Shown here piece after piece: positions 27,754 through 60,389 of a DNA stretch of 64,000 nt. The stretch comes from Acidimicrobiia bacterium (GTDB lineage Bacteria > Actinomycetota > Acidimicrobiia > IMCC26256 > JAOSJM01). How positions within the stretch are numbered: the stretch's first letter is position 1; every line of letters starts with the position of its first letter. The notes under the pieces were generated by a model. It worked only from the letters and a program-made list of their open reading frames with translations, ran no database searches and was not told the DNA's origin. The translations under genes were made by a program, and so were the position numbers. Location: NCBI GenBank assembly GCA_027494165.1, contig JAOSJM010000005.1, positions 62,001 to 126,000 on the forward strand, read 5' to 3'.

Positions 27754-27768
27754 TAACGTACAACGTCA
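27754..27768 (-). promoter_or_regulatory. 15-bp operator-like palindrome, copy 1 (upstream of acyl-CoA dehydrogenase)
   Basis: Minus strand TGACGTTGTACGTTA. It matches the consensus TNACGTTGNACGTNA shared by seven sites and lies 34 bp before ATG 27719. Confidence 0.65.
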
Positions 27769-27801
27769 GATCCTGCCCCGGCGCACCGCGCCGGCGTCCC
27801 G

Positions 27802-29322
27802 TCACGAGGGATCGGCCAGCTCCTTGCGGAGCTCGACCTTCAGCACCTTCCCCGTCACGTTGCGCGGCAGCTCGCCGACCCGGACCCAGCGCTTGGGGAC
27901 CTTGTAGGAGGCCAACCGCTCCCGCAGGTACGCGTCGAGCTCGTCGTCGGGTGGTGCCTCGCCCGCCAGGACGCCGGTGACGACCTGGCCCCACTTCGGG
28001 TCGGGGAGACCGATCACCGTCGCGTCCCTCACCCCGGGGTGCTCGGTGAGCACGGCCTCCACCTCCCGCGGGTAGACGTTCTCGCCCCCGGTGACGATCA
28101 TGTCGTTGCGGCGGTCCACCACGTGGAGGAACCCCCGCGGGTCGAAGCGCCCCAGGTCGCCGGTGTGCATCCAGCCGTGGCGGAGCGTCTCCGCGGTGGC
28201 CTCGGGGAGGTTCCAGTAGCCCGACATGACCGCCGGGCCCCGGCACACGATCTCGCCCACCTCGCCCTGGGGCACCGGCCGATCGTGCTCGTCGAACACC
28301 TCCACGTCGAAGCTGACCGCGGCCCTGCCTCCCGAGGCCAGGGCCTCGTCGTCGTCGGGATCGTGGTCCTCGGGGTGCAGGATCGTCTGGGCCCCCGTCT
28401 CGGTCATGCCGTACTGCTGGTGGAACCCGCACCGGAAGCGCTCGAGCGCCCGGCGGAGCAGGGGAGGCTCGATCGACGAGCCGCCGTAGACGATGAGGCG
28501 GAGGCTCGAGCTGTCGTGGGTCGCGCTCGCCGGCGACTCGAGCAGCATCTGGATCATCGTGGGCACGAGGACGGTGGCAGTGCACCGCTCGTGCTGGAGC
28601 GTCTCGAACCAGCCCTCGGGGGTGAAGCTGTGCAGCATCACCGTCGCGCCGCCCCGGAACACGATCGCGTAGGTCAGGAAGGCCCCGATGTGGAACATCG
28701 GGAGGCTGTGGAGGAAGCGGTCGTCGGCCCGGGCCTCCATCTCGAGGGCGTTCACGAACACCCGGGCCGTGAGGCCGGCCCGGTCGATCATGGCGCCCTT
28801 CGGGCGACCCGTGGTGCCGCTGGTGTAGAGGAAGGTCGTGTTCAGGTCCAGGTCCAGCGGGTCGGCGTCGGGATCCGGCTGGGCCGAGGCGAGGAAGGCG
28901 TCGTAGGGCTCCACGTCCCCCGAGGGGTCGGTCGGGCCGAGGCCCACCAGCCGGCACCCGCGCTCGCGCCCGAGGGCGGTGATCCGCTCGTGCTCACCCC
29001 GTCCGCCGACGATCACCGCCGGGGCGCAGTCCCCGACGATGTAGTCGAGCTCGGGCCCCGCCAGCCGGAAGTTCAGCGGGACGAGCGTGAACCCCGACCG
29101 GGCGCAGGCGGCCTGCACCTCGACGTACTCGAGCTCGTTGGCCGCCAGCAGCGCCACCCGGTCCCCCGGCGCCAGGCCGGCCCCGCGCAGCGCCGCGCCG
29201 AGCCGGCCCACCCGCTCGTCGAGCTCCCGGAACGTGAGCCGGGTGTCCGAGCCCACCACGGCCGTGGCGTCGGGGGTCCGGCGGGCTGCGCCCGACACGA
29301 TGTCCAGGTACCGCTTCAGCAT
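27802..29322 (-). CDS. AMP-forming acyl-CoA ligase
   Basis: A 506-residue intact ligase: TFLYTSGTTGRPKGAMIDRA P-loop, QQYGMTETGAQTILHPEDHD, TGDLGRFDPRGFLHVVDRRND and NVTGKVLKVELRKEL with the catalytic lysine. The N-terminal part (VSGAARRTPDATAVVGSDTR) and overall pattern are close to the ligase at 19609. It follows the MaoC gene by 33 bp, at the end of the block that starts with the duplicated ligases. It would make the CoA ester of a small or medium acid; substrate unknown. Confidence 0.9.
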   Translation of the reverse strand: MLKRYLDIVSGAARRTPDATAVVGSDTRLTFRELDERVGRLGAALRGAGLAPGDRVALLAANELEYVEVQAACARSGFTLVPLNFRLAGPELDYIVGDCAPAVIVGGRGEHERITALGRERGCRLVGLGPTDPSGDVEPYDAFLASAQPDPDADPLDLDLNTTFLYTSGTTGRPKGAMIDRAGLTARVFVNALEMEARADDRFLHSLPMFHIGAFLTYAIVFRGGATVMLHSFTPEGWFETLQHERCTATVLVPTMIQMLLESPASATHDSSSLRLIVYGGSSIEPPLLRRALERFRCGFHQQYGMTETGAQTILHPEDHDPDDDEALASGGRAAVSFDVEVFDEHDRPVPQGEVGEIVCRGPAVMSGYWNLPEATAETLRHGWMHTGDLGRFDPRGFLHVVDRRNDMIVTGGENVYPREVEAVLTEHPGVRDATVIGLPDPKWGQVVTGVLAGEAPPDDELDAYLRERLASYKVPKRWVRVGELPRNVTGKVLKVELRKELADPS

Positions 29323-29355
29323 GCGACCTCCTGTGGTCCGGCCGGCCCGTGGCGG

Positions 29356-29850
29356 CTACGGCGCCGGATCCTCCCGGGCGGGACGGGCGGCGACGACCAT
29401 CACCCAGCGGCCGTCGGCGACCCGGACCCCGTCGTCCTTCACGATCTCGTAGTGGAACGTCACGACCCCGCGCGGCTTGCCGGGCCTGGGCTCGGTCTCC
29501 TCGACGGTCAGCTCGACGTGGATCGTGTCGCCGAAGCGGACCGGCTGGTGGTAGCGGATCGTCTGCTCCAGCATGGCCAGACCCGTCCCCGCGAAGAGGC
29601 CGAGGCGCTCCTTGAGCCCCGAGGCGATGGCCACCGCCATGAGGCCGGGCGGGAAGCGACCGCCGAAGAGGCCGTGCTCGGTGGCGTACACCTCGTCGAC
29701 GTGCATGGGGTTCATGTCACCGGTGAACATGGCCCAGAGCCCGCCGTCGACCTCGGTCACCGTGCGCCCCTGGGTCACGATCCGCTCGCCGGGCCGGAAG
29801 TCCTCGAAGTACCGGGCCCCGGGTCCGACCGGGCGGTGCGCGGGGGCCAT
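29356..29850 (-). CDS. MaoC-like hot-dog fold dehydratase
   Basis: A 164-residue protein with the MaoC pattern: ARYFEDFRPGERIVTQGRTV, then FTGDMNPMHVDEVYATEHGL with the Asp-x5-His hydratase motif, and RFPPGLMAVAIASGL. Family members hydrate enoyl-CoA, or dehydrate 3-hydroxyacyl-CoA. ATG 29850 overlaps the stop of the SDR (ATGA), so the SDR (dehydrogenase) and this hydratase are probably two consecutive steps of a beta-oxidation-like sequence. Confidence 0.88.
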   Translation of the reverse strand: MAPAHRPVGPGARYFEDFRPGERIVTQGRTVTEVDGGLWAMFTGDMNPMHVDEVYATEHGLFGGRFPPGLMAVAIASGLKERLGLFAGTGLAMLEQTIRYHQPVRFGDTIHVELTVEETEPRPGKPRGVVTFHYEIVKDDGVRVADGRWVMVVAARPAREDPAP

Positions 29851-30617
29851 CAGTAACCCATCCAGCCGCCGTCGATGGCCAGCGTGGTGCCGTCGACGTA
29901 GCCGGCGTCGTCGGAGAGCAGGAAGGCGATCCCGCCCACGAGCTCCGAGGGGTCGGCCGGGCGGCGCATCGGGATCCGCGGCCGCAGGCCACCGGGGTCG
30001 TCGTCGCCCTCGCCGCCCTCCAGGGAGGCGGCCATGTCGGTGCGCATCCAGCCCGGAGCGACGGCGTTCACCCGGATCCCGTGGCGGGCGAGGTCGGTGG
30101 CGGCCCCCCGGGTGAAGGCGAGGAGAGCCCCCTTCGAGGCCGCGTAGGCCGACAGGCCGGGCAGGGAGGCGACGTGGGCGGTGGTCGACGTGATGTTCAC
30201 CACCGAGCCCGGACGGCCCGCGGCGACGAGCCGGCGAGCGAGCTCCCGGGTGGCGATCATCGGCCCCATGGCGTTGATCCTCAGGATCCGGTCGATCTCC
30301 TCGTCGTCGAGGTCGAGGACCCGGGTCGACGACAGGATCCCGGCGTTGTTCACGAGCGCGTCGGCCGGTCCGCCCCACTCGGCCTCCACCGCGTCGAGGA
30401 CCGCCCGGACGCCTTCGGCGGTGGCGCAGTCTGCCTCCACGCCGAGCGCCGGGCCGAGCGCACCCACCTCGGCGGCGGCCCGTCGGACTCCCGGGCCGTC
30501 GAGGTCCGCGAGCGCCACCCGGGCACCCTCGCGGGCGAGGCCCTCGGCGACCGCCCGGCCCAGCCCCCGGGCGGCGCCGGTGACGACGGCCGTGCGACCC
30601 TCGAGACGTCCCTTCAT
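29850..30617 (-). CDS. Short-chain dehydrogenase/reductase (FabG-like)
   Basis: A 255-residue SDR with TGAARGLGRAVAEGLAREGA, NNAGILSSTRVLD, the catalytic set ITSTTAHVASLPGLSAYAASKGA (Ser, Tyr-x3-Lys intact) and GTTLAIDGGWMGY. It is a likely NAD(P)-dependent 3-hydroxyacyl-CoA dehydrogenase or related alcohol dehydrogenase. ATG 30617 overlaps the stop of the ligase (TGA 30614-30616). In the raw sequence a ligase frame appears to run on into this gene, but that is an artefact of an extra base at 30692-30695. Confidence 0.88.
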   Translation of the reverse strand: MKGRLEGRTAVVTGAARGLGRAVAEGLAREGARVALADLDGPGVRRAAAEVGALGPALGVEADCATAEGVRAVLDAVEAEWGGPADALVNNAGILSSTRVLDLDDEEIDRILRINAMGPMIATRELARRLVAAGRPGSVVNITSTTAHVASLPGLSAYAASKGALLAFTRGAATDLARHGIRVNAVAPGWMRTDMAASLEGGEGDDDPGGLRPRIPMRRPADPSELVGGIAFLLSDDAGYVDGTTLAIDGGWMGY

Positions 30618-32179
30618 CCGACCGGGCGCTCGTGGCCCGTCCAGTAGCGCTCCCGGAGCTCCTTCTTGAGGATCTTCCCGGTCCCGCCGACGGGGAAGCT
30701 CGTCCACGATCTCCAGCGACCGCGGCTTCTTGTAGTCGGCGAGGCGCTCGGCCGCGAAGGCCATCAGCTCCTCGGGCGTGGCCTCCTGGCCCGGCGCCGG
30801 CACCACCAGCGCGTGGATGGCCTCCCCCCACTTGTCGTGGGGCACCCCGATCACCGCGACCTGGCCCACCGCCGGGTGCCCGTACAGCGCCTTCTCCACC
30901 TCCACGCTGAACACGTTGATCCCGCCCGTGATGATCATGTCCTTGAGGCGGTCCACGATCGTCACGAACCCGTCCGGGTCCACCGTGGCCAGGTCCCCCG
31001 ACTTGAACCACTCCCCCGAGCGCGCCGCGACCGTCTCCTCGGGCATCCGGAAGTACTCCGGCGAGACGCTGTCACCGCGCATCCACACCTCGCCCCCGGT
31101 CGCGTCGTCCCGGGGGACGTCGACGCCGTGCTCGTCGACCACCCGCACCTGCATGAGCACGTGCGGCTTGCCCGCAGAGCCCAGCCGCCGGACCTGCTCC
31201 TCGGTGCCCTCGGTGTGCTGGTCCTCCCGGCGCAGGTGCATGCCGACCGAGTAGGTCTCGGCCATCCCGTACATCGGGAAGAAGACGTCACCGATGATCT
31301 GCTTCCCGCGCTCGAGCATCTCGCGGGGGATGGGGGATCCACCGCAACCGATGGCCATGATCGACGAGAGGTCGTGCTGCTCGCACTCGGGGTGGGCCAG
31401 CACCATCCCGATCATGGTCGGCACGAGGATCGAGTGGGTCACCCGGTACTCGGGCACCGCCCGCAGGAAGCTCCCCGGCTCGAAGGCCGGGAAGATCACG
31501 GTCCGGCCCCCCTTCAACAGCACCGGGTGCAGGCCCGAGACCCCGCCGGGGTTGAAGAACAGGGGGATGTTCTGGAGGTTCGTGCCTTCGGGCGGCACCG
31601 GCATCTCGACGGCCCAGCAGAGGATCCCCGCCATGGCGTTGGCGTGGGTGAGGACCGCACCCTTGGGGATCCCCGTCGTGCCGCTCGTCGCCCCGAGCTG
31701 GTACGTGTCGGTGTCGTCGACCGCACACCCCGGATCGCCGCCCTCCTGGGCCTCCACCAACCCCGCGTAGTCCAGGTCGAACCCGTGGCCCTCCCCCACA
31801 CCGATCACGTGACGGATCGACGGCACCTCGGCCACCCAACCCGCCTGACCCACCAGGTCCGCGTGGACCAGGATCGCCGAGGGCTCCACGTAGTTCAGGT
31901 ACGACACCAGCTCCGCCGGCGCCAGACGGATGTTCGTCGTCGACCCGATCACCCCCGACTTCGCGCACCCGAAGAAGAACTCGATGTACTCACCGCAGTT
32001 CGGCGCGTACGTCGCCACCCGATCGCCCTTGCCCAACCCCAGACCCAGGAACGCCCGGGCCAGCTGGTTCGTCCGCTCCTCCAACCCCGCCCACGTGAGA
32101 CTCCCCCACCCGGGACCACCACCGCCTCCCGGTCGCCGTAGAAGTCGGCGTTGCGGCGCACGATGTCGCTGATCAGCAT
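30614..32179 (-). CDS. AMP-forming acyl-CoA ligase, duplicate A (two one-base frame breaks)
   Basis: About 521 residues. It is a tandem paralogue of the ligase at 32252-33814. The direct comparison shows two indels: one C missing at 32109-32111 (VVVPGGG then SLTWAG) and one G too many at 30692-30695, before GGTGKILKKELRERYW. P-loop YQLGATSGTTGIPKGAVLTH and hinge SGDLATVDPDGFVTIVDRLKD are identical to duplicate B. Residues differing from B cluster in the substrate region: NAMAGILCWAVEMP, IGCGGSPIPREMLERGKQII, YGMAETYSVGMH. So A and B should activate different acids. An operator copy sits 31 bp before ATG 32179. Confidence 0.88.
30620..31064. repeat. Near-identical duplicated block: 3' end of ligase A
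   Basis: This 445-bp block matches 32255-32698 (444 bp). By eye I find only one substitution (G for A near 30949) and the extra G at 30692-30695. Synonymous positions are also identical, so the copies exchanged sequence recently. Confidence 0.85.
31644..32179. repeat. Near-identical duplicated block: 5' end of ligase A
   Basis: It matches 33278-33814. The differences seen are one missing C plus an adjacent substitution at 32108-32111 and one substitution near the start codon. The 579 bp between the two blocks (31065-31643) are clearly diverged from 32699-33277, though equal in length. Confidence 0.85.
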
Positions 32180-32210
32180 GACCTCTCCCGCGAGGCTGAT
32201 CCGACCGATC

Positions 32211-32225
32211 TCACGTTCAACGTTA
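32211..32225 (-). promoter_or_regulatory. 15-bp operator-like palindrome, copy 2 (upstream of ligase A)
   Basis: Plus strand TCACGTTCAACGTTA, minus strand TAACGTTGAACGTGA. It lies 31 bp before ATG 32179, the same spacing as copy 3 to ligase B. Confidence 0.68.
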
Positions 32226-32251
32226 TATGACACACTTCACGGCGCCTCGCC

Positions 32252-33814
32252 TCAGACCGGGCGCTCGTGGCCCGTCCAGTAGCGCTCCCGGAGCTCCTTC
32301 TTGAGGATCTTCCCGGTCCCGCCGACGGGAAGCTCGTCCACGATCTCCAGCGACCGCGGCTTCTTGTAGTCGGCGAGGCGCTCGGCCGCGAAGGCCATCA
32401 GCTCCTCGGGCGTGGCCTCCTGGCCCGGCGCCGGCACCACCAGCGCGTGGATGGCCTCCCCCCACTTGTCGTGGGGCACCCCGATCACCGCGACCTGGCC
32501 CACCGCCGGGTGCCCGTACAGCGCCTTCTCCACCTCCACGCTGAACACGTTGATCCCGCCCGTGATGATCATGTCCTTGAGACGGTCCACGATCGTCACG
32601 AACCCGTCCGGGTCCACCGTGGCCAGGTCCCCCGACTTGAACCACTCCCCCGAGCGCGCCGCGACCGTCTCCTCGGGCATCCGGAAGTACTCCGGCGACA
32701 GGGTGTCTCCCTTGAGCCAGACCTCACCGGCCGTCGCGTTGTCCCGGGGGACGTCGACGCCGTGCTCGTCGACCACCCGCACCTGGTTGAGGACCATGGG
32801 CTTGCCCGCGGAGCCCAGCCGCCGGACCTGCTCCTCGGTGCCCTCGGTGTGCTGGTCCTCCCGGCGCAGGATGAGCCCGGACGAGTAGCTCTCGGCCATC
32901 CCGTACATCGGGAAGAAGACGTCGCCGAACACCTCGCGGGCCCTCGCCAGCACCTCCCTCGGCAGCGGCGAGCCGCCGATGCTCACCGCCATGATCGAGG
33001 AGAGGTCGTGCTGCTCGCACTCGGGGTGGGCCAGCACCATCCCGACCATGGTCGGCACGAGGATCGAGTGGGTCACCCGGTACTCGGGCACCGCCCGCAG
33101 GAAGTTCCCCGGCTCGAAGGCCGGGAAGATCACGGTCCGGCCCCCCTTCATCAGCACCGGGTGCATCCCGGCCGGGCCGCCGGGGTTGAAGAACAGGGGG
33201 ATGTTCTGGAGGTTCGTGCCCTCGGGCGGGTAGGGCATGTCGGCCATCCAGTTGAGCATGGCGGCGATGGCGTTGCGGTGGGTGAGGACCGCACCCTTGG
33301 GGATCCCCGTCGTGCCGCTCGTCGCCCCGAGCTGGTACGTGTCGGTGTCGTCGACCGCACACCCCGGATCGCCGCCCTCCTGGGCCTCCACCAACCCCGC
33401 GTAGTCCAGGTCGAACCCGTGGCCCTCCCCCACACCGATCACGTGACGGATCGACGGCACCTCGGCCACCCAACCCGCCTGACCCACCAGGTCCGCGTGG
33501 ACCAGGATCGCCGAGGGCTCCACGTAGTTCAGGTACGACACCAGCTCCGCCGGCGCCAGACGGATGTTCGTCGTCGACCCGATCACCCCCGACTTCGCGC
33601 ACCCGAAGAAGAACTCGATGTACTCACCGCAGTTCGGCGCGTACGTCGCCACCCGATCGCCCTTGCCCAACCCCAGACCCAGGAACGCCCGGGCCAGCTG
33701 GTTCGTCCGCTCCTCCAACCCCGCCCACGTGAGACTCCCCCGCCCCGGGACCACCACCGCCTCCCGGTCGCCGTAGAAGTCGGCGTTGCGGCGCACGATG
33801 TCGCTGACCAGCAT
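32252..33814 (-). CDS. AMP-forming acyl-CoA ligase, duplicate B
   Basis: An intact 520-residue ligase and reference for its copy A. It starts MLVSDIVRRNADFYGDREAV and shows ATSGTTGIPKGAVLTH, FPMYGMAESYSSGL, SGDLATVDPDGFVTIVDRLKD and GGTGKILKKELRERYW. It has substrate-region residues different from A (NAIAAMLNWMADMP, VSIGGSPLPREVLARAREVF), while the first about 160 and last about 145 residues are the same. ATG 33814 has an operator copy 31 bp upstream, and the stop lies 73 bp before the next start, so each copy can be transcribed on its own. Confidence 0.92.
   Translation of the reverse strand: MLVSDIVRRNADFYGDREAVVVPGRGSLTWAGLEERTNQLARAFLGLGLGKGDRVATYAPNCGEYIEFFFGCAKSGVIGSTTNIRLAPAELVSYLNYVEPSAILVHADLVGQAGWVAEVPSIRHVIGVGEGHGFDLDYAGLVEAQEGGDPGCAVDDTDTYQLGATSGTTGIPKGAVLTHRNAIAAMLNWMADMPYPPEGTNLQNIPLFFNPGGPAGMHPVLMKGGRTVIFPAFEPGNFLRAVPEYRVTHSILVPTMVGMVLAHPECEQHDLSSIMAVSIGGSPLPREVLARAREVFGDVFFPMYGMAESYSSGLILRREDQHTEGTEEQVRRLGSAGKPMVLNQVRVVDEHGVDVPRDNATAGEVWLKGDTLSPEYFRMPEETVAARSGEWFKSGDLATVDPDGFVTIVDRLKDMIITGGINVFSVEVEKALYGHPAVGQVAVIGVPHDKWGEAIHALVVPAPGQEATPEELMAFAAERLADYKKPRSLEIVDELPVGGTGKILKKELRERYWTGHERPV
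32255..32698. repeat. Near-identical duplicated block: 3' end of ligase B
   Basis: Partner of 30620-31064. It ends abruptly at the shared TACTCCGGCGA, after which the two ligase genes diverge at many codons. Confidence 0.85.
33278..33814. repeat. Near-identical duplicated block: 5' end of ligase B
   Basis: Partner of 31644-32179. It begins at the shared GTGGGTGAGGACC beside the P-loop codons, which places the break of identity just after the AVLTH motif. Confidence 0.85.
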
Positions 33815-33845
33815 GACCCTGCTCCTCCGCGGGGTTCCCGAAGTC

Positions 33846-33860
33846 TTTCGTCTTACGTTA
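33846..33860 (-). promoter_or_regulatory. 15-bp operator-like palindrome, copy 3 (upstream of ligase B)
   Basis: Plus strand TTTCGTCTTACGTTA, the weakest match to the consensus: one half (TACGTTA) is good, the other has two changes. Spacing of 31 bp to ATG 33814 equals that of copy 2. Confidence 0.5.
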
Positions 33861-33900
33861 GATGCTGCACCTGGACCGGCGGAACCGGTGCTCCGGCGGC

Positions 33901-34674: not shown

Positions 34675-34698
34675 GGCGTGCTCCCGGTCGGACCCCGT

Positions 34699-37329: not shown

Positions 37330-38222
37330 CAGACCCGCCGGATCTCGGGCTTGCCGAACAGACCCTGCTGCCGGACGAGCAACACGAGGATCATCACGAC
37401 GTAGGCCACCACCAGATGGAAGTTCTCGCCGAGCGCCGAGGGCGCGTAGCGGGCGGCGTAGACCTCGACGAGCCCGATGACCGTCCCGCCCACGATGGCC
37501 CCGGGCACCGAGTCCATGCCGCCGATGACGACGGCGGGGAGGCTGCGGAGCGCGATCTCCGGCGTGGTCGGCGAGAGGAGGCGGGGGAAGGTACCGGTGA
37601 AGGCCCCGGCGACGGCGGCGAGCATGCCCGCCACGAACCAGGCCCCGACCAGCACGGTCCTCACGTTGACGCCGTTGGCCGCCGCGGCCTCCTCGTCCTC
37701 GGCGATGGCCCGGAAGAGGAGCCCCCAGCGGGAGCGACTGAGCACCACGACGAGGAGGGTCACCACGACCACCGCCGTCCCGATGAGCCAGAGCTGCGAC
37801 GTGAAGACGTTCGCCCCGAAGATCTCGGTCGTGTCGGCCTGCCACGGCGAGCCGACCTCGATGTTGTCGCCCGACCAGGGACGGTACGAGCCGATGGCGG
37901 TCCGCATGGCCGTCTCCACCCCGATCGTGGCGATGGCGATGGCGAAGATCGACCGGCCCACGAGCGGGGCGGCCACGAGCAGGTAGACGACGGCGCTGGC
38001 GACGCCGCACAGGAGGGCCGAGAGCCCGACGGCCGGCCAGTAGCCCAGATCCCAGCTGCTCGTCCCCTGGAAGACGAGGAAGGCCCCCAGGAGGAGCACG
38101 GCCACGTGGGCGAAGTTCAGGGTGCTCGAGGACTTGAAGATGATCACGAAGCCGAGCGCGATCAGGGTGTAGATCGCCCCGACCGCGAGCCCGCCGACCA
38201 CCAGCGCGACCTGCTCGCTCAT
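37329..38222 (-). CDS. livH: Branched-chain amino acid-type ABC permease, LivH family
   Basis: A 297-residue permease: VGGLAVGAIYTLIALGFVII, STLNFAHVAVLLLGAFLVF (the LivH NFAH motif), AIAEDEEAAAANGVNVRTV cytoplasmic loop, and VIGGMDSVPGAIVGGTVIGL. About eight hydrophobic segments. ATG 38222 overlaps the stop of the ligase gene (ATGA), so ligase and transporter are translationally coupled, a strong hint that the imported acid is the ligase's substrate. Confidence 0.92.
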   Translation of the reverse strand: MSEQVALVVGGLAVGAIYTLIALGFVIIFKSSSTLNFAHVAVLLLGAFLVFQGTSSWDLGYWPAVGLSALLCGVASAVVYLLVAAPLVGRSIFAIAIATIGVETAMRTAIGSYRPWSGDNIEVGSPWQADTTEIFGANVFTSQLWLIGTAVVVVTLLVVVLSRSRWGLLFRAIAEDEEAAAANGVNVRTVLVGAWFVAGMLAAVAGAFTGTFPRLLSPTTPEIALRSLPAVVIGGMDSVPGAIVGGTVIGLVEVYAARYAPSALGENFHLVVAYVVMILVLLVRQQGLFGKPEIRRV

Positions 38223-40144
38223 GCCCCGTACATCTCCTCGATGAGATCCTCGTAGCGCTCGGCGATGATCCTCCGCTTGACCTTCTGGGTGGCGGTGAGC
38301 TCGCCGTCGTCCTGGTCGAGCTCGCGAGGCAGGATCCGGAAGGCCTTCACCTGCTCGACCCTCGCCATCTCGTCGTTCGCCGCGCGCACCACTCCCTCGA
38401 TCAGCTCGTGGACCTCGGGCTTCTCGGCGAGGTCCCGGTACGTCGTGAAGAGGAGGCCGCGACGCTTGGCCCAGTCGGAGACGGTGTCCAGCTCGATCTG
38501 GATCAGGGCGGACACGAACTTCCGCCGGTCCCCGATGACCACGGCCTCCTTCACGAACGGCGAGACCTTGAGCTTGTTCTCGATCTCGGACGGGCTGAGG
38601 TTCTTGCCGCCCGAGGTGATGATGATGTCCTTCTTGCGGTCGGTGATCTTGAGCCGGCCGTCGGCGACCCACTCGCCGACGTCGCCGGTGGCGAGCCACC
38701 CGTCGGCGTCGACGGTCTCGGCGGTCGCCTCGGGGCGGCACCAGTAGCCGGCGAAGACGTTGTCCCCCCGGACGAGGATCTCGCCGTCCTCCGCGAGGCG
38801 CACCTCGACCCCGGGGAAGGGGGCGCCGACGGTCCCCAGGACGAAGTCGTCGACGTCGTTGGCGGTGGCCATCCCGGTGCACTCGGTCTGGCCGTACGCC
38901 TCGGTGATCGGGACCCCCATGGCCCGGAAGAAGAACAGCACCTCGGGCGCGATGGGCGCGCCGGCCGAGAGGCCGATCCGGACCCGGCTCAGGCCGGTGT
39001 GGGCCTGGAGCGAGCGGAAGAGGAACAGCCAGGCGAGGAGGTACACGGGCTGCTCGTACCAGGCCAGGCGGTGGGGACGGCGGGCCAGGCGCCGCCGGGC
39101 GAGCCACTCCCCCACCCGCCGCCAGACGCGGTAGTTCGCCCGCTTGAACCACGAGCTGTCGGCGACCTTCATCTCGACGTTGGCGAGGATCTTCTCCGAG
39201 ACCCGGGGCACGGCGAAGAACAGGGTGGGCCGGACCTCCCGCAGGTCCTCGTTCACGGTGTCGACCGACTCGGCGAAGTTGACCTTCACCCCGCAGCCGA
39301 GCCCGTCGTAGAGGCTCATCACCTGCTCGGCCACGTGGCACAGGGGGAGGTAGGAGAGGACCTCGTCGCTGGGCGTGACCCCGAAGTAGCACGCGTGGAT
39401 CCGGATCGCCGCCACGATGTTCCGCCAGGTGAGCACCGCCCCCTTGGGCGGTCCCGTCGTCCCCGAGGTGTAGATGATCACCGCGGGGTCGTCGGGCCCC
39501 GCCCGGTCCAGCTCGCGGTCCCAGCGTTGCGGGTCGGCGCCGAGCGCCTCCTCGCCCCGGCGCAGGAGCTCGTCCCAGTGCACGATCCGGGGGTCGGCGT
39601 ACGCGGGACCGACGGTCCCCTTCCGCTCGACCACGATCACGTGCTCGAGCGACGGGCACCGGTCGAGGATCTCGACGGCCTTGTCGAGCTGCTCCTGGTC
39701 CTCGGCGACGAGCACCCGGGCCCCCGAGTCCTCCACCTGGTAGGCGAGCTCCGCGGCCGCGTTCGTCGGGTAGACGCCGAACGCGATGGCCCCGAGCCCC
39801 TGGGCTCCGAGACACGCGTGGAACCACTCGGGGCGGTTCTCCGACAGGATGCCGAGCCGGTCCTCGCGCTGGAGGCCCAGGGCGGCGAGCCCCGCACCGA
39901 CCATCCGCGTCGTCCGGGCCCACTCCCCGTACGTGATCTCCTTCCAGCGGCCGAGCGTCTTCTCGCGCAGGGCCACGGTTCCGGGTGCGGCCCGCTCCCA
40001 GCGCACGAGGAGCTGGGGGAGGGTCGGGACACCCGTCTCGAGACCGCCCGCCGGTCGCGCCGGCGGCGCCTCCGTGTCGGTCGCCGTGGACACCGTGCCT
40101 GTGCTCAACGTGTGCTCGAGACCTCGCTCGCCCGCCCGTGCCAT
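38219..40144 (-). CDS. Long-chain-type AMP-forming acyl-CoA synthetase (FadD15-like)
   Basis: About 641 residues, larger than the other ligases and of the long-chain/very-long-chain class: AVIIYTSGTTGPPKGAVLTW, YLPLCHVAEQVMSLYDGLGC, AYGQTECTGMATAN, ATGDVGEWVADGRLKITDRK, KDIIITSGGKNLSPSEIENK and a C-terminal QKVKRRIIAERYEDLI helix, the class pattern. ATG 40144 is the longest sensible start without a clear ribosome site; an internal GTG about 18 codons downstream is an alternative. It heads the minus-strand operon ligase-livH-livM-binding protein-crotonase, with an operator about 100 bp upstream shared with livF. Confidence 0.88.
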   Translation of the reverse strand: MARAGERGLEHTLSTGTVSTATDTEAPPARPAGGLETGVPTLPQLLVRWERAAPGTVALREKTLGRWKEITYGEWARTTRMVGAGLAALGLQREDRLGILSENRPEWFHACLGAQGLGAIAFGVYPTNAAAELAYQVEDSGARVLVAEDQEQLDKAVEILDRCPSLEHVIVVERKGTVGPAYADPRIVHWDELLRRGEEALGADPQRWDRELDRAGPDDPAVIIYTSGTTGPPKGAVLTWRNIVAAIRIHACYFGVTPSDEVLSYLPLCHVAEQVMSLYDGLGCGVKVNFAESVDTVNEDLREVRPTLFFAVPRVSEKILANVEMKVADSSWFKRANYRVWRRVGEWLARRRLARRPHRLAWYEQPVYLLAWLFLFRSLQAHTGLSRVRIGLSAGAPIAPEVLFFFRAMGVPITEAYGQTECTGMATANDVDDFVLGTVGAPFPGVEVRLAEDGEILVRGDNVFAGYWCRPEATAETVDADGWLATGDVGEWVADGRLKITDRKKDIIITSGGKNLSPSEIENKLKVSPFVKEAVVIGDRRKFVSALIQIELDTVSDWAKRRGLLFTTYRDLAEKPEVHELIEGVVRAANDEMARVEQVKAFRILPRELDQDDGELTATQKVKRRIIAERYEDLIEEMYGA

Positions 40145-40244
40145 TCTGGCCCAGCGAGCCGGTCCGGGACCCGGTACGCTCGCCCCCCTCTGGTGCCGAC
40201 CTGGGGTACCGTTCCGTCCCCGGTCCATCTTCGAGGTCGGGACT

Positions 40245-40259
40245 TTACGTTGTACGTTG
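40245..40259. promoter_or_regulatory. 15-bp operator-like palindrome, copy 4 (between ligase and livF)
   Basis: TTACGTTGTACGTTG in the 201-bp divergent region, 100 bp from ATG 40144 and 86 bp from GTG 40346. The arms match the consensus almost perfectly. One site here could control both halves of the transporter. Confidence 0.68.
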
Positions 40260-40345
40260 AGGATATGTAAAGTACCGCCCTCCGAGCCGGCCGCCGGTCC
40301 CCCCTTCCTGCGGAGGCGCCGGCCCGGGACCGACCCCGAGGACCC

Positions 40346-41185
40346 GTGACCGACACGACCACGAGCACCGCCGAGGACCGGGAAGCGTCCGACCGGAGCC
40401 CCGTGCTGCTCGAGACCCGCGGCCTCGAGGTCGTCTACCAGGACGTCATCCAGGCCCTCCGCGGCGTGTCGATCCAGGTGCCCCACGGCGCGATCGTCGC
40501 CATGCTCGGCCCGAACGGGGCCGGCAAGACCACCACCCTGCGAGCGGTGACCGGGCTCCTCGACTTCCACAAGGGCCGGATCGCCAAGGGCTCGGTCCAC
40601 TTCGACGGCGAGGACGTGAGCACCGCGTCGGCCGCCCGCCTCGTCTCCGGCGGGATCGCCCAGGTCCTCGAGGGCCGGCGGATCTTCCCCACCCTGACCG
40701 TCGACGAGAACCTGAAGGTCGGCACGGGGGGCCGGCGGCGGCCCGACGCCCTCGAGAAGGTCTGGGACCTCTTCCCCGTGCTCGCCGAGCGGCGGCAGCA
40801 GCCCGGCGGTTACCTCTCCGGGGGCGAGCAGCAGATGCTGGCCATGGCCCGCGCGCTGGTCTCCGACCCCCGCCTGCTCGTGCTCGACGAGCCGTCGCTC
40901 GGGCTGGCGCCCAAGCTGGTCGACGTCGTGGCCGACCTCATCACGCGCATCAACGAGCTCGGCACGACGGTGCTGCTCGTGGAGCAGAACGCGGCCGTCG
41001 CGCTCGACATCTCCCACCACGGCTACGTGGTCGAGAACGGCCGCATCGTGATGGACGCGCCGAGCGCCGAGCTCCGCCGCAACGAGGACATCCTCGAGTT
41101 CTACCTGGGCGTCAAGGAGGGAGGTGAGCGACGCAGCTATGCCGACGTCAAGCACTACCGGCGCCGCAAGCGGTGGCTCTCCTGA
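40346..41185 (+). CDS. livF: Branched-chain amino acid-type ABC ATPase, LivF family
   Basis: A 279-residue ATPase with Walker A GPNGAGKTTT, VLEGRRIFPTLTVDENL, signature YLSGGEQQMLAMARAL, Walker B LLVLDEPSLGLAPK and H-loop LLVEQNAAVAL, the LivF set. It has an extra N-terminal tail (about 20 residues) and a basic C-terminal tail (RSYADVKHYRRRKRWLS). GTG 40346. Its partner permeases lie divergently at 36161-38222. The end overlaps livG. Confidence 0.92.
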   Translation: MTDTTTSTAEDREASDRSPVLLETRGLEVVYQDVIQALRGVSIQVPHGAIVAMLGPNGAGKTTTLRAVTGLLDFHKGRIAKGSVHFDGEDVSTASAARLVSGGIAQVLEGRRIFPTLTVDENLKVGTGGRRRPDALEKVWDLFPVLAERRQQPGGYLSGGEQQMLAMARALVSDPRLLVLDEPSLGLAPKLVDVVADLITRINELGTTVLLVEQNAAVALDISHHGYVVENGRIVMDAPSAELRRNEDILEFYLGVKEGGERRSYADVKHYRRRKRWLS

Positions 41186-42270: not shown

Positions 42271-43417
42271 CTACAGGCCGAGCTGCTTGGCGATGATGTT
42301 GCGCTGGATCTGGGAGGTGCCGGCCCCCACCGGGTTGAGCAGCGAGTCGCGCAGGTGCCGCTGCATCGGGTACTCGAGCATGTAGCCGTACCCCCCCAGG
42401 ATCTGCATGCCCTGGAGGCAGATCTCCTTCGCCTTCTCGGTGACGAAGAGCTTCACCATGGCCGCCTCCTTGGCGCAGGGCTCACCACGCCGGTGGCGGT
42501 CGGCCACCGAGTAGATGAAGGCCCGGCACGCCTCGAGGTCGGTGGCCATGTCGGCGACCATGTGCGCGACCGCCTGGAAGCGCCCGATCGGCTGGCCGAA
42601 CTGGTGTCGCTCCTTCGCGTGGGTGATCGCCTCGTCGAGCGCGGCGCGCGCCGTCCCGAGCGACTGGGCCGCGATGATGATGCGCTCCAGCTCGAAGGTC
42701 CCCATCACCTGGTTCCAGCCGCGCCCGACCGCCTCCACGCCCCCCGAGCACGGCGTCGGCGGGCACCTCGACGTCGTCGAAGGTCAGCTCGCAGGCGCTC
42801 ATCCCCCGGGTCCCGAACTTGTCGAGCTTGCGTACCCCGAACCCCGGCGCGTCCCGGGGGACGAGCAGGATCGTCAGGCCGTCGTGGCGGCGCTCCTCGC
42901 GGCTGGTGCGGGTGACGACGAGCACGAGCGTGGCCTCGTGGGCGCCGGTGATGAACACCTTGCGCCCGTTGACGCGCCACACGTCGCCGTCACGCTCGGC
43001 CCGGGTCGTGATCCCCGCGACGTCGGAGCCCGCGTCGGGTTCCGTGATCGCCATGGCGCAGCGGACCTCGCCGGCGCACATCCCGGGCAACAGCTCCCGG
43101 CGCTGGCGGTCGGTCCCGTTGTGGAGCACGTTGAGCCCGCCGAACAGGATGGTCGTGCCCACGACGCCCGAGAGCCCGGCGGACACCGCGGTCAGCTCCT
43201 CCATGAGGACGAGCAGGTCGAGCACGTCACCGCCGCCACCGCCGTACTCCTCGGGGAAGGGGAGCCCCAGGTAGCCCAGCTCGACCATGCGGTCGGCCAC
43301 CCACCCCGGCACCTCGTCCCGCTCGTCGATCTCCCGGACCAGCTCCGGCGTGATCTCCCGCGCCAGGAACTGGCGGACGGACGCGCGCAGGGCCTCGTGC
43401 TCGTCGGTGAGGATCAT
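42271..43417 (-). CDS. Acyl-CoA dehydrogenase (one-base frame break)
   Basis: About 381 residues: ILTDEHEALRASVRQFLARE, LPFPEEYGGGGGDVLDLLV, AMAITEPDAGSDVAGITTRA, VNGRKVFITGAHEATLVL. The frame breaks in the six-C run 42740-42745 (one base extra) after ADAVLGG, then AVGRGWNQVMGTFELERIII, AKERHQFGQPIGRFQAVAHM, GMQILGGYGYMLEYPMQRHL and AGTSQIQRNIIAKQLGL. ATG 43417 follows CCGGAGGGTGGC. FAD-dependent alpha-beta desaturation of an acyl-CoA. It is divergent from a second dehydrogenase at 43587, with one operator midway; the two may form a heteromeric enzyme like steroid side-chain FadE pairs. Confidence 0.88.
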
Positions 43418-43494
43418 GCCACCCTCCGGGCCGGACGTGGACGGGACCGGGTCGAGCGTGCCCGCGACCACTTGTCCGGTGATTGTCGGACCGT

Positions 43495-43509
43495 TTACGT
43501 TGAAGGTCA
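43495..43509. promoter_or_regulatory. 15-bp operator-like palindrome, copy 5 (between divergent dehydrogenases)
   Basis: TTACGTTGAAGGTCA, exactly 77 bp from each of the divergent starts 43417 and 43587. The symmetrical placement supports dual control. Confidence 0.6.
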
Positions 43510-43586
43510 GGTTACGTCACCCGCCGACCTACCCGCCGACCTCGGGAAGACACCGCCGAGCCCGGCCTCGACCGAAACGAGCGACC

Positions 43587-46449: not shown

Positions 46450-46452
46450 GCA

Positions 46453-54080: not shown

Positions 54081-54088
54081 TCCCCCTC

Positions 54089-54105: not shown

Positions 54106-54115
54106 CGGTCCCGGC

Positions 54116-54925
54116 TCAGCGGCCGGGGAGCTCCTCGACGAACTCGAAGAGGCCCTTCGAGAGGTGGTGGCCGCCGTCGATGGTCAGGCAGTGGCCGGTG
54201 ACGTACGCGGCGTCGTCGGAGAGCAGGTAGGCGACGGCCCGGGCGGTCTCCTCGGGGCGCAGCAGCCGCCCGGCCGGGATGGCCTGTAGCAGCCGGGCCT
54301 CGTCCTCGGGCGTCCGCACGAGCGCCTCGGTCCCCCCGACCGGCATCCAGCCCGGGGCGACGGCGTTGACCCGGACCCCGCGGCCGGCCCACTCGACCCC
54401 GAGCGTGCGGGTCATGTTGAGCACGCCGCCCTTGGCCGCCGCGTTGTGCACGATCCCCGGGCCCCCCATCCAGGCGTAGGGCGTGAGCACGCTCACCACC
54501 GCGCCGGGCCTCCCGGCGTCCAGCCAGCGGGTGGCGACCTCGCGGGTGCAGTGGAACGTGCCGTGGAGCACGATCTCCACGACGGCCCGGAACCCGTTGG
54601 GGCTGAGCTGCTCGGCGTGGACCGGGAAGAGCCCCGACGCGTTGTTCACCAACCCGTCGACGTGCCCGAGAGCCGCCTCGGCCGCGTCGACCATGGCGGC
54701 CACGGCGGCCGGGTCCCGCACGTCGCAGATCGCGAGGTGGCAGCGGCCCTCCCCCAGCTCGGCCGCCACCGCGTCGACGGTGCGGGCCAGGGACTCCTCG
54801 GTCCGCCCGCACACCAGCACCGAGGCACCCAGCCGGCAGAGCTCGGCGGCCATGGCCGACCCCAGCCCCCCACCGCCGCCGGTCACGATGATGCCCTTCC
54901 CGTCGACCCCGGACAGCGTCGTCAC
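54116..54925 (-). CDS. Short-chain dehydrogenase/reductase, 2,4-dienoyl-CoA reductase-like
   Basis: A 269-residue SDR with GKGIIVTGGGGGLGSAMAAE, NNASGLFPVHAEQLSPNGFR and GHCLTIDGGHHLSKG. The catalytic Tyr position reads GIVHNAAAKGGVLNMTRTLG: Lys kept, Tyr absent, as in dienoyl-CoA reductases and in the SDR at 16366. GTG 54925 overlaps the LLM stop (GTGA). The reaction is likely reduction of an unsaturated acyl-CoA in concert with the LLM oxidoreductase. Confidence 0.82.
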   Translation of the reverse strand: MTTLSGVDGKGIIVTGGGGGLGSAMAAELCRLGASVLVCGRTEESLARTVDAVAAELGEGRCHLAICDVRDPAAVAAMVDAAEAALGHVDGLVNNASGLFPVHAEQLSPNGFRAVVEIVLHGTFHCTREVATRWLDAGRPGAVVSVLTPYAWMGGPGIVHNAAAKGGVLNMTRTLGVEWAGRGVRVNAVAPGWMPVGGTEALVRTPEDEARLLQAIPAGRLLRPEETARAVAYLLSDDAAYVTGHCLTIDGGHHLSKGLFEFVEELPGR

Positions 54926-55995
54926 GTCTCCTCCTGGAGCAGGGCCGCCAGCCTCACGCAGCCGGCGGCGGCGGACCTGGCGGCGTCGAGGTCCGCCAGC
55001 GGGACCGGGTCCCAGAGCACCACGTGGTCGAGGCCCCGGTACCGGCCGATCTGCTCGGCCACCTCCTCGGGGGTGCCGTGCAGCATCTGGTCGTGGACGA
55101 CCTCGAAGGGGACCGCCTCGGCGGCCCGCAGCTGGTCCGCCCCGGCCCGGCTCGCCACCATGTGGTGGAGCCCGCCCCCGCCGAGGGGGTGCGAGGCACC
55201 CACGGCCTCGTACCGCTCGGGCGGGAGGAGGAGCGCGAACGCCTTGAGGACCGGGTGCTCGAGCAGGCGGTGGGCGGCCTCGTGGTCGTCCTGGAGCACG
55301 ACCTGGACCGAGAGGCCGTACGTCAGCGCCGAGGGGTCACGGCCGGCCTCCGCGGCCGCCGACGCCACGGCCTCCTTCCCGGCGTGCCAGGCGTCGACGG
55401 TGAGGAAGTTGGGGATCCAGCCGTCCCCGTACCGCCCCGCGGTCCGGAACCCCCTGGGCCCGTGAGCCGCCAGCCAGAGCCGGGGCCCGGGCGACCCCTC
55501 GGGCGGGCGCAGGCCCATCACCGCACCCTGCTCGTCGGGACCCGGGTCGTCGAGCAGGCGCCGGATCCGGGCCGCCGCCTCGTCGAGGACCCGCGCCGGG
55601 GACGGCACCTCGACCCCGTACGGGCCGTAGTTGGCGTACTCCCCCGACCCCAGGCCGAGCACGACGCGCCCGGGCGCCAGGTGGTCGAGGCTGAGGACGG
55701 TCTGGGCCAGCGTCGCCGCGTTGCGCCGGATGGCGTCGGTGACGCACACCCCGACGAGGGCGTCGCCCGCCGCCCCGGCCGAGACCGCCATGCAGACGAA
55801 CGGATCGGCGTACACGTGGGGGTCGGGCTGGATCCGCCCCAAACCCCCGGTGGCCCACAGCTCGGCCGAGTGGAACGCCACGAGGTGGTCCGGCCACCAG
55901 AACGAGCGCAGGCCCGACGCGGCGAGCCTGGACACCCGCCGGGCCATGGCGTCGAACGGAGGCGTGGGGCCCATGGCGATGCCCACGTCAGGCAC
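54922..55995 (-). CDS. LLM class (F420-type) flavin-dependent oxidoreductase
   Basis: A 357-residue luciferase-like protein: PPFDAMARRVSRLAASGLRS, FWWPDHLVAF, CVTDAIRRNAATLAQTVLSL, APGRVVLGLGSGEYANYGPYG, WLAAHGPRGFRTAGRYGDGW. Same family as 5192-6241, but with a clearer GSGE(Y)xN F420-type segment. ATG 55995; the region to the + crotonase holds an operator copy, so the LLM-SDR pair and the 56094 operon may be co-regulated. Confidence 0.86.
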   Translation of the reverse strand: MPDVGIAMGPTPPFDAMARRVSRLAASGLRSFWWPDHLVAFHSAELWATGGLGRIQPDPHVYADPFVCMAVSAGAAGDALVGVCVTDAIRRNAATLAQTVLSLDHLAPGRVVLGLGSGEYANYGPYGVEVPSPARVLDEAAARIRRLLDDPGPDEQGAVMGLRPPEGSPGPRLWLAAHGPRGFRTAGRYGDGWIPNFLTVDAWHAGKEAVASAAAEAGRDPSALTYGLSVQVVLQDDHEAAHRLLEHPVLKAFALLLPPERYEAVGASHPLGGGGLHHMVASRAGADQLRAAEAVPFEVVHDQMLHGTPEEVAEQIGRYRGLDHVVLWDPVPLADLDAARSAAAGCVRLAALLQEET

Positions 55996-56044
55996 CCCGC
56001 GCCCCTCCCCGGCTCCTCGACCATCCCCTGCCCATGGCGAAAAC

Positions 56045-56059
56045 TTACCTTGGACGTAA
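56045..56059. promoter_or_regulatory. 15-bp operator-like palindrome, copy 6 (between LLM and crotonase)
   Basis: TTACCTTGGACGTAA, 34 bp before GTG 56094 and 49 bp before ATG 55995 on the other strand. Arms pair at six of seven positions. Confidence 0.62.
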
Positions 56060-56093
56060 GATGTTATGCACGACCGCTGCAGAGGAGGACGCC

Positions 56094-56897
56094 GTGTCCC
56101 TGTCGGAGCAGCCCTGGGAGCGACTGAAGGTCCGGGAGACGGACCGGAGGGTCGACATCACGATCTCCTGGCCCGAGCGCCGCAACGCCCTCGACTTCAC
56201 CACGTGGGACGAGCTCGATCGGGTGATGCTCGAGGTGGCCCGTCACGACGAGGTGCGGGTCGTCACGCTCACGGGCGAGGACCCCGCGTTCTGCGCCGGG
56301 GTCTCGTTCGACGCCATCGGGAGCTCCCTGGGGGTCGAGAAGCAGCAGTACCCCAGCTTCATCCGCCGCTGGGCCGGCGTGGCGGACCACTTCGAGCGGG
56401 TCGCCCAGCCCACCATCGCCGCGATCAACGGCCCCGCCATCGGCGCGGGCTTCGAGATCGCCCTCGCCTGCGACCTCCGGATCGCCAGCGACCGGGCCGT
56501 CTTCTGCATGCCCCAGATGCGCATGGGCATCGTCCCCGACGCCGGCGGGACCAGCCGGCTGGCCCGGGCCGCCGGGTCGGCCGTGGCCAAGGACCTCGTC
56601 CTCTCCAGCCGAGTGATCGACGCCGAGGAAGCGCTGCGCTGCGGCATCGTGAGCCGGGTCGTCCCGCACGAGGAGCTCGGCGCCGAGGTGGACGCCCTCG
56701 CCGACCAGGTCGCCGAGCTCCCCTGGCCGTCGGCCTACTTCGCCGTCGTGGCCATCGACAGCGGGCCCCACCTCGACCCCCGGCGGGCGGCCGACCTCGA
56801 GGGCATCGCCGACCAGGTGATGCTCCGCCAGGACGAGGTCTGGGAGAAGGTCGAGGGCTTCATGGCCAGCCGGGGCCTGAAGGGGTTCCGCCCGTGA
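56094..56897 (+). CDS. Enoyl-CoA hydratase/isomerase family protein
   Basis: A 267-residue crotonase: VDITISWPERRNALDFTTWD, GEDPAFCAGVSFDAIG, NGPAIGAGFEIALACDLRIA, MGIVPDAGGTSRLARAAGSA. GTG 56094 follows GAGGAGGACGCC, better than the upstream ATG 56034, which would overlap the operator. Its stop overlaps the SDR start (GTGA). First gene of the crotonase-SDR-molybdoenzyme operon. Likely hydratase followed by the dehydrogenase step. Confidence 0.86.
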   Translation: MSLSEQPWERLKVRETDRRVDITISWPERRNALDFTTWDELDRVMLEVARHDEVRVVTLTGEDPAFCAGVSFDAIGSSLGVEKQQYPSFIRRWAGVADHFERVAQPTIAAINGPAIGAGFEIALACDLRIASDRAVFCMPQMRMGIVPDAGGTSRLARAAGSAVAKDLVLSSRVIDAEEALRCGIVSRVVPHEELGAEVDALADQVAELPWPSAYFAVVAIDSGPHLDPRRAADLEGIADQVMLRQDEVWEKVEGFMASRGLKGFRP

Positions 56898-57601: not shown

Positions 57602-57628
57602 CCACCACCGAGCAGAGGGGGGAGCCCC

Positions 57629-60202: not shown

Positions 60203-60214
60203 CCCATCCTCCCC

Positions 60215-60257
60215 GCGTTGGGACGGATCCGGCCCTCCCCGGGGCCCCCGACGTCCC
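60215..60257. repeat. 43-bp direct repeat, unit 1
   Basis: Starts GCGTTGGGACGGATCC and ends CGACGTCCC. The ends GGGACG and CGTCCC are complementary, and GGCCCT with GGGGCC forms an inner stem, so each unit folds into a hairpin. It lies just after the end of the molybdoenzyme operon and may be one of two tandem terminators. Confidence 0.8.
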
Positions 60258-60276
60258 ATCGCCGACGGCGCGGTGC

Positions 60277-60319
60277 GCGTTGGGACGGATCCGGCCCTCC
60301 CCGGGGCCCCCGACGTCCC
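60277..60319. repeat. 43-bp direct repeat, unit 2
   Basis: Exact second copy, period 62 bp, in the 241-bp gap before the mutase gene. The remainder of the gap holds the operator copy at 60375-60389 and no gene. Confidence 0.8.
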
Positions 60320-60374
60320 GACGCGGGGAGTGCGCGGCCCGCGTTGACGGTCCGCGATCCCGGACCGTAAGATT

Positions 60375-60389
60375 TAACGTTGAACGGCA
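60375..60389 (+). promoter_or_regulatory. 15-bp operator-like palindrome, copy 7 (upstream of mutase operon)
   Basis: TAACGTTGAACGGCA, 54 bp before ATG 60444. A GTAAGAT-type sequence just before it could be part of a promoter. Confidence 0.62.

What the first reader, a model, noticed from the sequence alone, without database searches (positions are those of the whole stretch)
27754..60389. Seven copies of a 15-bp palindrome define a putative acyl-CoA catabolic regulon
Sites at 27754, 32211, 33846, 40245, 43495, 56045 and 60375 fit TNACGTTGNACGTNA (a TNACGTT arm, one centre base, and its complement). All lie in intergenic spaces upstream of acyl-CoA ligase, dehydrogenase, LivF, crotonase or mutase genes, often 31-34 bp before the start codon. 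None of the three TetR genes in the window sits beside a copy, so the regulator is likely elsewhere. I do not recognise the motif as a published operator such as KstR or KstR2, though I cannot search.
Basis: seen in the sequence. Interest (0 to 1): 0.8.

Follow-up and report, generated by a model that had tools for sequence, protein, structure and literature searches.

The report
Acyl-CoA breakdown regulon with MerR switch
A short palindromic DNA switch repeated before many acyl-CoA-degrading genes is real, and it most likely belongs to a small MerR-family regulator encoded just outside the window, related to known amino-acid-degradation regulators but with its own version of the switch.

Summary
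The seven sites are real, intergenic and far above chance, though only 2 of 7 match the printed consensus exactly. They belong to about 22 sites in C5:45-158 kb and C1:1.79-1.82 Mb; in this genome the element extends to a 25-bp dyad. The probable regulator is not a TetR. Two MerR-family proteins (143 and 152 aa, 68% identical, no cysteine) lie 17-20 kb past the window; the first has a perfect site 68 bp before its ATG. Four of 11 genomes with a close homologue (Acrocarpospora, two overlapping Actinomycetes MAGs, a Chloroflexi MAG) carry 6-18 strict places, mostly intergenic, several before orthologous genes; the other seven have 0-3 strand hits. On a stricter pattern, 40 order-mates without the MerR have at most one place each. 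Before 30 of 68 distant MerR genes the same half-sites stand one base closer. Reading: an autoregulated, LiuR-like MerR regulon for acyl-CoA catabolism with a one-base-longer operator core. Binding, ligand and sign of control are inferred.

The parts
27749..27773 (-). 25-bp operator (core 27754-27768), 34 bp before ATG of an acyl-CoA dehydrogenase (26595-27719, -)
32206..32230 (-). Operator (core 32211-32225), 31 bp before ATG 32179 of an AMP-ligase/SDR fusion gene (down to 29850, -; frame break near its start)
33841..33865 (-). Weaker operator (core 33846-33860), 31 bp before acyl-CoA ligase 32252-33814 (-); this ligase and the neighbouring copy are a 94%-identical tandem duplication, each with a site; a 68%-identical gene in G058 also has a site in front (L213:2162)
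40240..40264 (.). Operator (core 40245-40259) between ABC-transporter ATPase 40346-41185 (+) and AMP-ligase 38219-40093 (-)
43490..43514 (.). Operator (core 43495-43509) midway between two divergent acyl-CoA dehydrogenase genes (ATG 43417 on -, ATG 43587 on +; both with frame breaks)
56040..56064 (+). Operator (core 56045-56059), 34 bp before enoyl-CoA hydratase 56094-56897 (+); divergent luciferase-like oxidoreductase 54922-55995 (-). Genes 64-67% identical to the hydratase have sites in front in L196 and L199
60370..60394 (+). Operator (core 60375-60389), 54 bp before a B12-type acyl-CoA mutase (60444-62047 +, two frames), B12-binding subunit (62114-62584) and CoA-transferase subunit (62584-63486). 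Sites also precede mutase-bearing operons in L099, L196 and L214
60444..62047 (+). Methylmalonyl-CoA-mutase-type large subunit, target operon. (The proposed regulator genes and their operator lie outside the window, at C5:143239-145994; see the full report.)
56094..56897 (+). Enoyl-CoA hydratase (crotonase), target gene
26595..27719 (-). Acyl-CoA dehydrogenase, target gene
32252..33814 (-). Acyl-CoA ligase, target gene

Best explanation
The palindromes are operators of a MerR-family regulator, most likely P0001 (C5:143322-143753), possibly shared with its paralogue P0002. A dimer of the winged-helix protein would bind the dyad (ACGT half-sites 7 bp apart, centre to centre) in or near the core promoter; 11 of 22 sites lie 20-56 bp before a start codon. 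It would control some 20 promoters for uptake (Liv-type ABC transporters and binding proteins), CoA activation (acyl-CoA ligases), beta-oxidation (dehydrogenases, crotonases, thiolase), AtuA- and acetone-carboxylase-like steps, a B12-dependent acyl-CoA mutase and luciferase-like oxidoreductases, and its own gene. By analogy with LiuR it probably represses these genes until an acyl-CoA intermediate binds. SHOWN by computation: the sites, their extended dyad, their grouping, the nearby MerR gene with a site in its promoter, the motif in several distant genomes picked by this MerR, sites before orthologous genes. INFERRED: physical binding, which of the two paralogues, repression versus activation, the ligand.
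For: Window sites far above chance. Whole genome: of 43 distinct places with up to 1 mismatch to TNACGTTNNACGTNA, 24 lie in two stretches (bounds set by eye, about 4% of the genome), with 9 of the 10 exact ones; 65 strand hits against 4 for the reversed pattern (places counted by hand). Spacing: TNACG-N5-CGTNA gives 16 exact hits (11 intergenic) in the 395 kb fetched, against 0-7 for the other spacers from 0 to 11. Flank columns not used in choosing sites are conserved (A at -3 in 30 of 44 arms) and A at -3 recurs in G064 (11 of 18) and G058 (19 of 32). MerR gene with a site in its own promoter. Genomes fetched by MerR similarity alone: 4 of 11 close-homologue genomes have 9-27 strict strand hits with 0 for the reversed pattern. 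On the stricter TNACGTTNAACGTNA these four have 2-9 distinct places (counted) and the window genome 4, against one place in 5 and none in 35 of 40 order-mates; none of 57 order-mates has a close MerR. Sites precede orthologues of own targets. Of 68 distant MerR loci 30 have an exact TNACG-N4-CGTNA within about 350 bp before the MerR match, and none of all 79 loci has spacers 1, 2 or 6-8 there; the own-genome matrix gives two hits of 20 bits or more in 648 kb of distant loci, both just before the MerR gene.
Against: Seven of 11 genomes with a close homologue (G059, G060, G062, G065-G068) have only 0-3 strict strand hits, so MerR similarity alone does not predict the motif; five of these form one fully supported subclade. 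G066 (Microtetraspora, L099) was labelled motif-bearing in the tree only for near-matches close to its MerR; the label needs at least two changes on the tree. G058 and G063 share letter-identical sequence and are not independent. The outer flanks are not conserved in the Chloroflexi genome (A at -3 in 11 of 30, at -5 in 5 of 30), so the 25-bp form is not general. Two paralogues cannot be told apart and P0002 has no strong site. The 25-column model run on the own genome returned 16 of its 22 training sites, missing six that include window sites 33846, 40245 and 56045. Other intergenic candidates of 15.4-17.7 bits were left out, three of them far from the cluster. No expression or binding data.
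Confidence: 0.83

Rival explanations
1. A TetR-family regulator of the genome (KstR/FadR-like) owns the sites.
For: TetR proteins commonly govern acyl-CoA catabolism in high-GC bacteria (recalled); one TetR gene (C1:1793709-1794449) is next to a site at C1:1793671; two further TetR matches lie 2.5-3.8 kb from a site.
Against: Of 39 TetR domain matches, 1 is within 2 kb of a mapped site, and that site lies behind the TetR stop codon, before a crotonase; the scan lists no site of 9 bits or more in the 3 kb before that TetR. Genes 71% identical to this crotonase keep the site in L196, L199 and L214, and the gene after them matches an SDR (by Pfam in L196, by best own match in the other two); not all other neighbours were annotated, and a TetR-like gene (29% to an own one) does lie near the Acrocarpospora MerR (L097:8270-8914). 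The motif was found again in genomes picked by MerR, not by TetR.
Confidence: 0.1
2. The sites are operators of a GntR/FadR-type or other winged-helix regulator: the centre GTTNAAC fits a GT-N3-AC signature (recalled).
For: Pattern resemblance only.
Against: I did not search the genome for GntR genes, so this is weakened only indirectly: a site lies in the MerR promoter and the motif was found again in genomes selected solely by MerR homology.
Confidence: 0.04
3. The palindromes are promoter elements (TTGACG-like -35 boxes) or chance, not operators.
For: TNACG resembles a -35 hexamer.
Against: No conserved -10 at fixed distance; two-fold symmetry and spacer preference; strict form rare in order-mates.
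Confidence: 0.03

Closest known systems
LiuR (MerR family), branched-chain amino acid utilisation regulator of Proteobacteria
   Same: Described as a MerR-family repressor of Ile/Leu/Val utilisation (passages of PMC3223726; passages of PMC5343134); acyl-CoA catabolic targets; ACGT inverted half-sites (LiuR operator letters recalled, not seen in a paper; a 14-bp version was observed here before distant MerR genes).
   Different: Core is 15 bp with an odd centre (one base longer), inside a 25-bp dyad in this genome; the 11 close homologues lie in records titled Actinomycetes, Streptosporangiaceae and allies, or Chloroflexi; targets also include AtuA, acetone-carboxylase-type subunits, B12 mutase, CoA-transferases, luciferase-like enzymes and Liv transporters. 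No verified LiuR protein was in my tree.
KstR / KstR2 and FadR-type TetR regulators
   Same: Control sets of fatty-acid or steroid CoA-catabolic genes in actinobacteria (recalled).
   Different: Different protein family; operator letters (recalled) do not resemble this motif; no TetR gene found with a site in front.
CueR/ZntR/MerR/SoxR metal- and redox-sensing MerR proteins
   Same: Same family; best matches among solved structures and NCBIfam models.
   Different: Scores far below NCBIfam cut-offs; no cysteine in P0001 or P0002; targets are catabolic.

Membership tests
LiuR-type MerR regulators | MerR winged-helix domain in a protein of about 130-150 aa | tested here: met
   PF00376/PF13411 over cut-off in P0001 (143 aa) and P0002 (152 aa)
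LiuR-type MerR regulators | Operator with ACGT inverted half-sites (recalled) | tested here: met
   TNACGTTNAACGTNA
LiuR-type MerR regulators | 14-bp spacing of the dyad (recalled for LiuR; observed in distant homologues) | tested here: not met
   Own regions: N5 16 exact hits, N4 6; distant homologues use N4 in 30 of 68 loci
LiuR-type MerR regulators | Targets are acyl-CoA / branched-chain catabolic genes | tested here: met
   the exact substrate is unknown
LiuR-type MerR regulators | Orthology to characterised LiuR proteins | not tested
   no verified LiuR sequence was included in the tree
LiuR-type MerR regulators | Repression relieved by a pathway acyl-CoA | not testable with these tools
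   needs bench work
TetR acyl-CoA regulators (KstR, KstR2, FadR) | A TetR gene with the operator in its own promoter | tested here: not met
   39 TetR matches; 1 within 2 kb of one of the 22 mapped sites, and there the site is behind the gene
Metal/redox MerR sensors (CueR, ZntR, MerR, SoxR) | Ligand-binding cysteines and NCBIfam equivalog score | tested here: not met
   0 cysteines; best 66.2 bits against cut-offs of 116.9 bits or more for the metal and SoxR models

The most novel reading that the evidence does not exclude
A so far undescribed clade of MerR regulators, shared by Actinomycetota and Chloroflexota and perhaps spread together with its operators, acts as a broad switch for branched, ketone and propionyl-type acyl-CoA catabolism (up to about 20 promoters per genome) and has shifted from a 14-bp to a 15-bp dyad, so the family shows a natural change in operator spacing that can be traced residue by residue.
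Probability: 0.5. Interest if true: 0.6.

Novelty: new variant of a known kind. Interest (0 to 1): 0.47.

Why it matters
It turns an unassigned motif into a testable regulator-operator pair, extends MerR control of acyl-CoA catabolism to high-GC Actinomycetota and Chloroflexota, where TetR proteins are usually credited (recalled), and gives a motif with which to group acyl-CoA ligase, dehydrogenase and AtuA/acetone-carboxylase clusters of unknown substrate. The 14- versus 15-bp spacing within one protein family is a natural experiment on how MerR dimers read DNA.

Tried and rejected
TetR as owner: all TetR domains of the genome searched, distances compared, rejected. Metal/redox MerR function: rejected on NCBIfam scores and absence of cysteine. 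Motif as promoter box: no conserved -10. Conservation in order-mates: negative (5 of 40 with a single strict place; 3 of 10 order-mates that I picked out of 40 have one place each by the 25-column model), explained by the lack of the MerR. By the same model (150 candidates scored per genome) the 11 MerR genomes have 13 (G058), 9 (G061), 6 (G063), 4 (G064), 2 (G068), 1 (G060), 1 (G066) and 0 places (G059, G062, G065, G067).

Literature: I saw search listings and passages of PMC5045206, PMC3223726 and PMC5343134; none showed LiuR operator letters, and the paper I recall as their source is not held. Searches for a MerR acyl-CoA regulon in Actinobacteria gave 0 papers, one for the motif letters with TetR terms gave 0; this covers only that open-access library and those terms. 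I did not look for GntR, IclR or LacI genes and predicted no structures. Substrate not resolved: the CoA-transferase subunits match glutaconate CoA-transferase and two other pairs in the PDB with similar scores.

Gene calls came from a simple home-made caller that missed some starts and genes; several were corrected by hand.
Full report
OBSERVATION. The seven 15-mers are present. Exact matches to the printed consensus number 2 of 7; a looser two-armed pattern with up to one mismatch gives 8 hits in the window against 0.66 expected and at most 4 in 100 shuffles. In a matrix scan of the fetched stretches the seven score 16.4-23.5 bits; the next best window hits score 15.3 and lie inside genes (4923, 7815). 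The matrix was trained on C5, which includes these sites.

GENOME SCALE. The window is C5:62001-126000 of a 4.41-Mb, 12-contig genome estimated 86% complete. With TNACGTTNNACGTNA and up to one mismatch the genome has 65 strand hits against 4 for the reversed pattern. By hand count these are 43 distinct places; 24 lie in C5:35-188 kb and C1:1.79-1.82 Mb (bounds set by eye; about 4% of the genome), with 9 of the 10 exact ones; the tenth (C7:287129) is inside a called gene. Three of the 24 (C5:35119, 36216, 187682) are also inside called genes. I worked on with 22 sites. Dropped were sites inside called genes (up to 20.6 bits) and eight intergenic ones of 15.4-17.7 bits: C5:34015, 41588, 41595, 57791, 140838, and, away from the cluster, C7:256525, C7:274891 and C1:1710698. 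In the 395 kb fetched, TNACG and CGTNA separated by 5 bases occur exactly 16 times (11 intergenic), by 4 bases 6 times (5 intergenic), by the other spacers of 0-11 0-7 times; 16% of that sequence is intergenic. The 22 sites show A at -3 (30 of 44 arms) and -5 (22 of 44), mirrored at +17 and +19, hence a 25-bp dyad ANANYTNACGTTNAACGTNARNTNT in this genome. A sequence-only model of these 25 columns run over the own genome returned 17 distinct places: 16 of the 22 training sites and one new place inside a called gene (C5:187678-187698), none outside C5:45-188 kb and C1:1.79-1.82 Mb. This is largely circular, only 150 of 570 candidates were scored, and six training sites, three of them in the window (33846, 40245, 56045), were not returned.

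TARGETS. Pfam finds next to sites acyl-CoA dehydrogenases, AMP-dependent ligases, crotonases, a thiolase, B12 mutase subunits followed by CoA-transferase subunits, Liv-type transporter parts and periplasmic binding proteins, an AtuA protein, hydantoinase/acetone-carboxylase-type subunits, luciferase-like oxidoreductases and an OYE-type enzyme. Eleven of the 22 sites lie 20-56 bp before a start codon (counted by eye).

THE REGULATOR (outside the window, so not in the parts list; subtract 62000 from C5 positions to continue window numbering). Of 39 TetR domain matches in the genome, one lies within 2 kb of one of the 22 sites, and that site is behind its stop codon. Instead C5:143322-143753 (+) encodes a 143-aa MerR-family protein, P0001, with the site TGACGTAAAACGTCA (C5:143239-143253) 68 bp before its ATG and another site 20 bp past its stop, and C5:145536-145994 (+) a 68%-identical 152-aa paralogue, P0002, with only a weak site in front (C5:145406, 11.4 bits). 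Of 10 MerR_1 matches in the genome these two are the ones within 2 kb of a site. Neither has cysteine and both score far below the cut-offs of all NCBIfam models listed for them.

TEST ACROSS GENOMES. With the own-genome matrix, sites of 20 bits or more occur within about 5 kb of the MerR gene in L096, L097 and L099 of the 11 and in none of the other 8; in the 69 distant loci (648 kb) there are two, both just before the MerR gene. Strict TNACGTTNNACGTNA over 13 whole genomes: strand hits (distinct places) 21 (16) in G058, 27 (18) in G061 (Chloroflexi), 9 (7) in G063, 10 (6) in G064 (Acrocarpospora); 0-3 strand hits in the other nine. Reversed-pattern hits: 0 in those four; elsewhere 0-2 in total, except 4 in G070. 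G058 and G063 are not independent: long stretches are letter-identical. On the stricter TNACGTTNAACGTNA, 5 of 40 order-mates have one place and 35 none; the four rich genomes have 5, 9, 2 and 4 places (counted) and the window genome 4. None of 57 order-mates, those 40 included, has a close MerR homologue at E <= 1e-20.

In stretches fetched because they hold strict sites, sites of 17 bits or more are intergenic in 9 of 9 (G064), 14 of 16 (G058), 14 of 15 (G061) and 0 of 1 (G063, where the called gene start looks too early); 7-18% of bases there are intergenic. A at -3 recurs in G064 (11 of 18 arms) and G058 (19 of 32) but hardly in G061 (11 of 30), and A at -5 does not recur in G064 or G061, so the outer flanks are not general.

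Genes similar to own targets keep a site in front: crotonase C1:1792798-1793589 (71% identity; L196:3906, L199:5628, L214:10155); crotonase window 56094-56897 (64-67%; L196:12855, L199:8281); ligase window 32252-33814 (68%, L213:2162; 47% in the Chloroflexi stretch L207:15051); hydantoinase-A-type C5:141185-143092 (67%, L200:4996); dehydrogenase C5:131638-133980 (75%, L202:16, 343 bp away); mutase-bearing operons in L214 (561) and L099 (9075), 44-46% identical to the window mutase, and in L196 (12802), whose best own match is another mutase on C1; and the CoA-transferase pair C5:124584-126334 (51-56%, Chloroflexi L209:5202), which in the window genome follows the mutase. Many other sites in the Chloroflexi stretches precede genes with weak or no match to own targets.

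SPACING VARIANT. Within about 350 bp before the MerR match, 30 of 68 distant loci have an exact TNACG-N4-CGTNA (many are related Bacillales). Exact N5 dyads occur before L096, L097, L098 and the spirochaete L144; L091 and L100 have an N3 form; spacers 1, 2 and 6-8 do not occur in any of the 79 loci (L129 was left out for want of upstream sequence). So the half-site appears common to a broad MerR group, and the window's clade seems to read it one base further apart. Among close homologues a fully supported subclade (L092, L093, L095, L100, L101) and Thermobifida (L098) come from genomes poor in the motif, so operator specificity seems to have changed within the clade; this is the main result against a one-protein-one-motif reading. 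In the tree I counted L099 as motif-bearing on near-matches alone.

MECHANISM AND CONFIDENCE. Operators close to start codons fit repression, and LiuR is described as a MerR-family repressor of branched-chain amino acid utilisation (passages of PMC3223726; PMC5343134 lists it as MerR). MerR-type activation from between -35 and -10 is not excluded; no fixed -10 was seen. The ligand is inferred to be a pathway acyl-CoA. The LiuR operator letters are recalled; none of the listings or passages I saw shows them.

Noticed in passing
window 29850-33860: The ligase of 32252-33814 is a tandem copy of the N-terminal part of the gene at 29850-32179 (94% identity over 1578 columns, 16 gap positions); one copy has a frame break early in the gene. 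Each copy has its own operator.
   Followed up: partly
window 32084-32179, 42271-43471, 43587-44767, 60444-62047: Several catabolic genes are split across frames, suggesting indel errors in this assembly (or decay).
   Followed up: no
L030:4906-5337 (C5:144906-145337): A small cyclic-nucleotide-binding-domain protein lies between the two MerR genes.
   Followed up: no
L214 and L096: Two MAGs recorded as different isolates (G058, G063) share letter-identical stretches of the regulon; either the same organism or contamination of one bin.
   Followed up: partly
window 62584-63486 and L029:5483-6334: CoA-transferase pair whose closest solved relatives are 5mzw-type, glutaconate and 6co*-type CoA-transferases; 73% and 83% identical in Acrocarpospora (L197), unusually conserved.
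   Followed up: partly
L092, L093, L095, L100, L101: A sister subclade of MerR proteins; in four of the loci (L093, L095, L100, L101) the MerR gene is divergent from a gene 66-69% identical to the thiolase C5:44555-45703. These genomes have few copies of the motif, so another operator is likely.
   Followed up: partly
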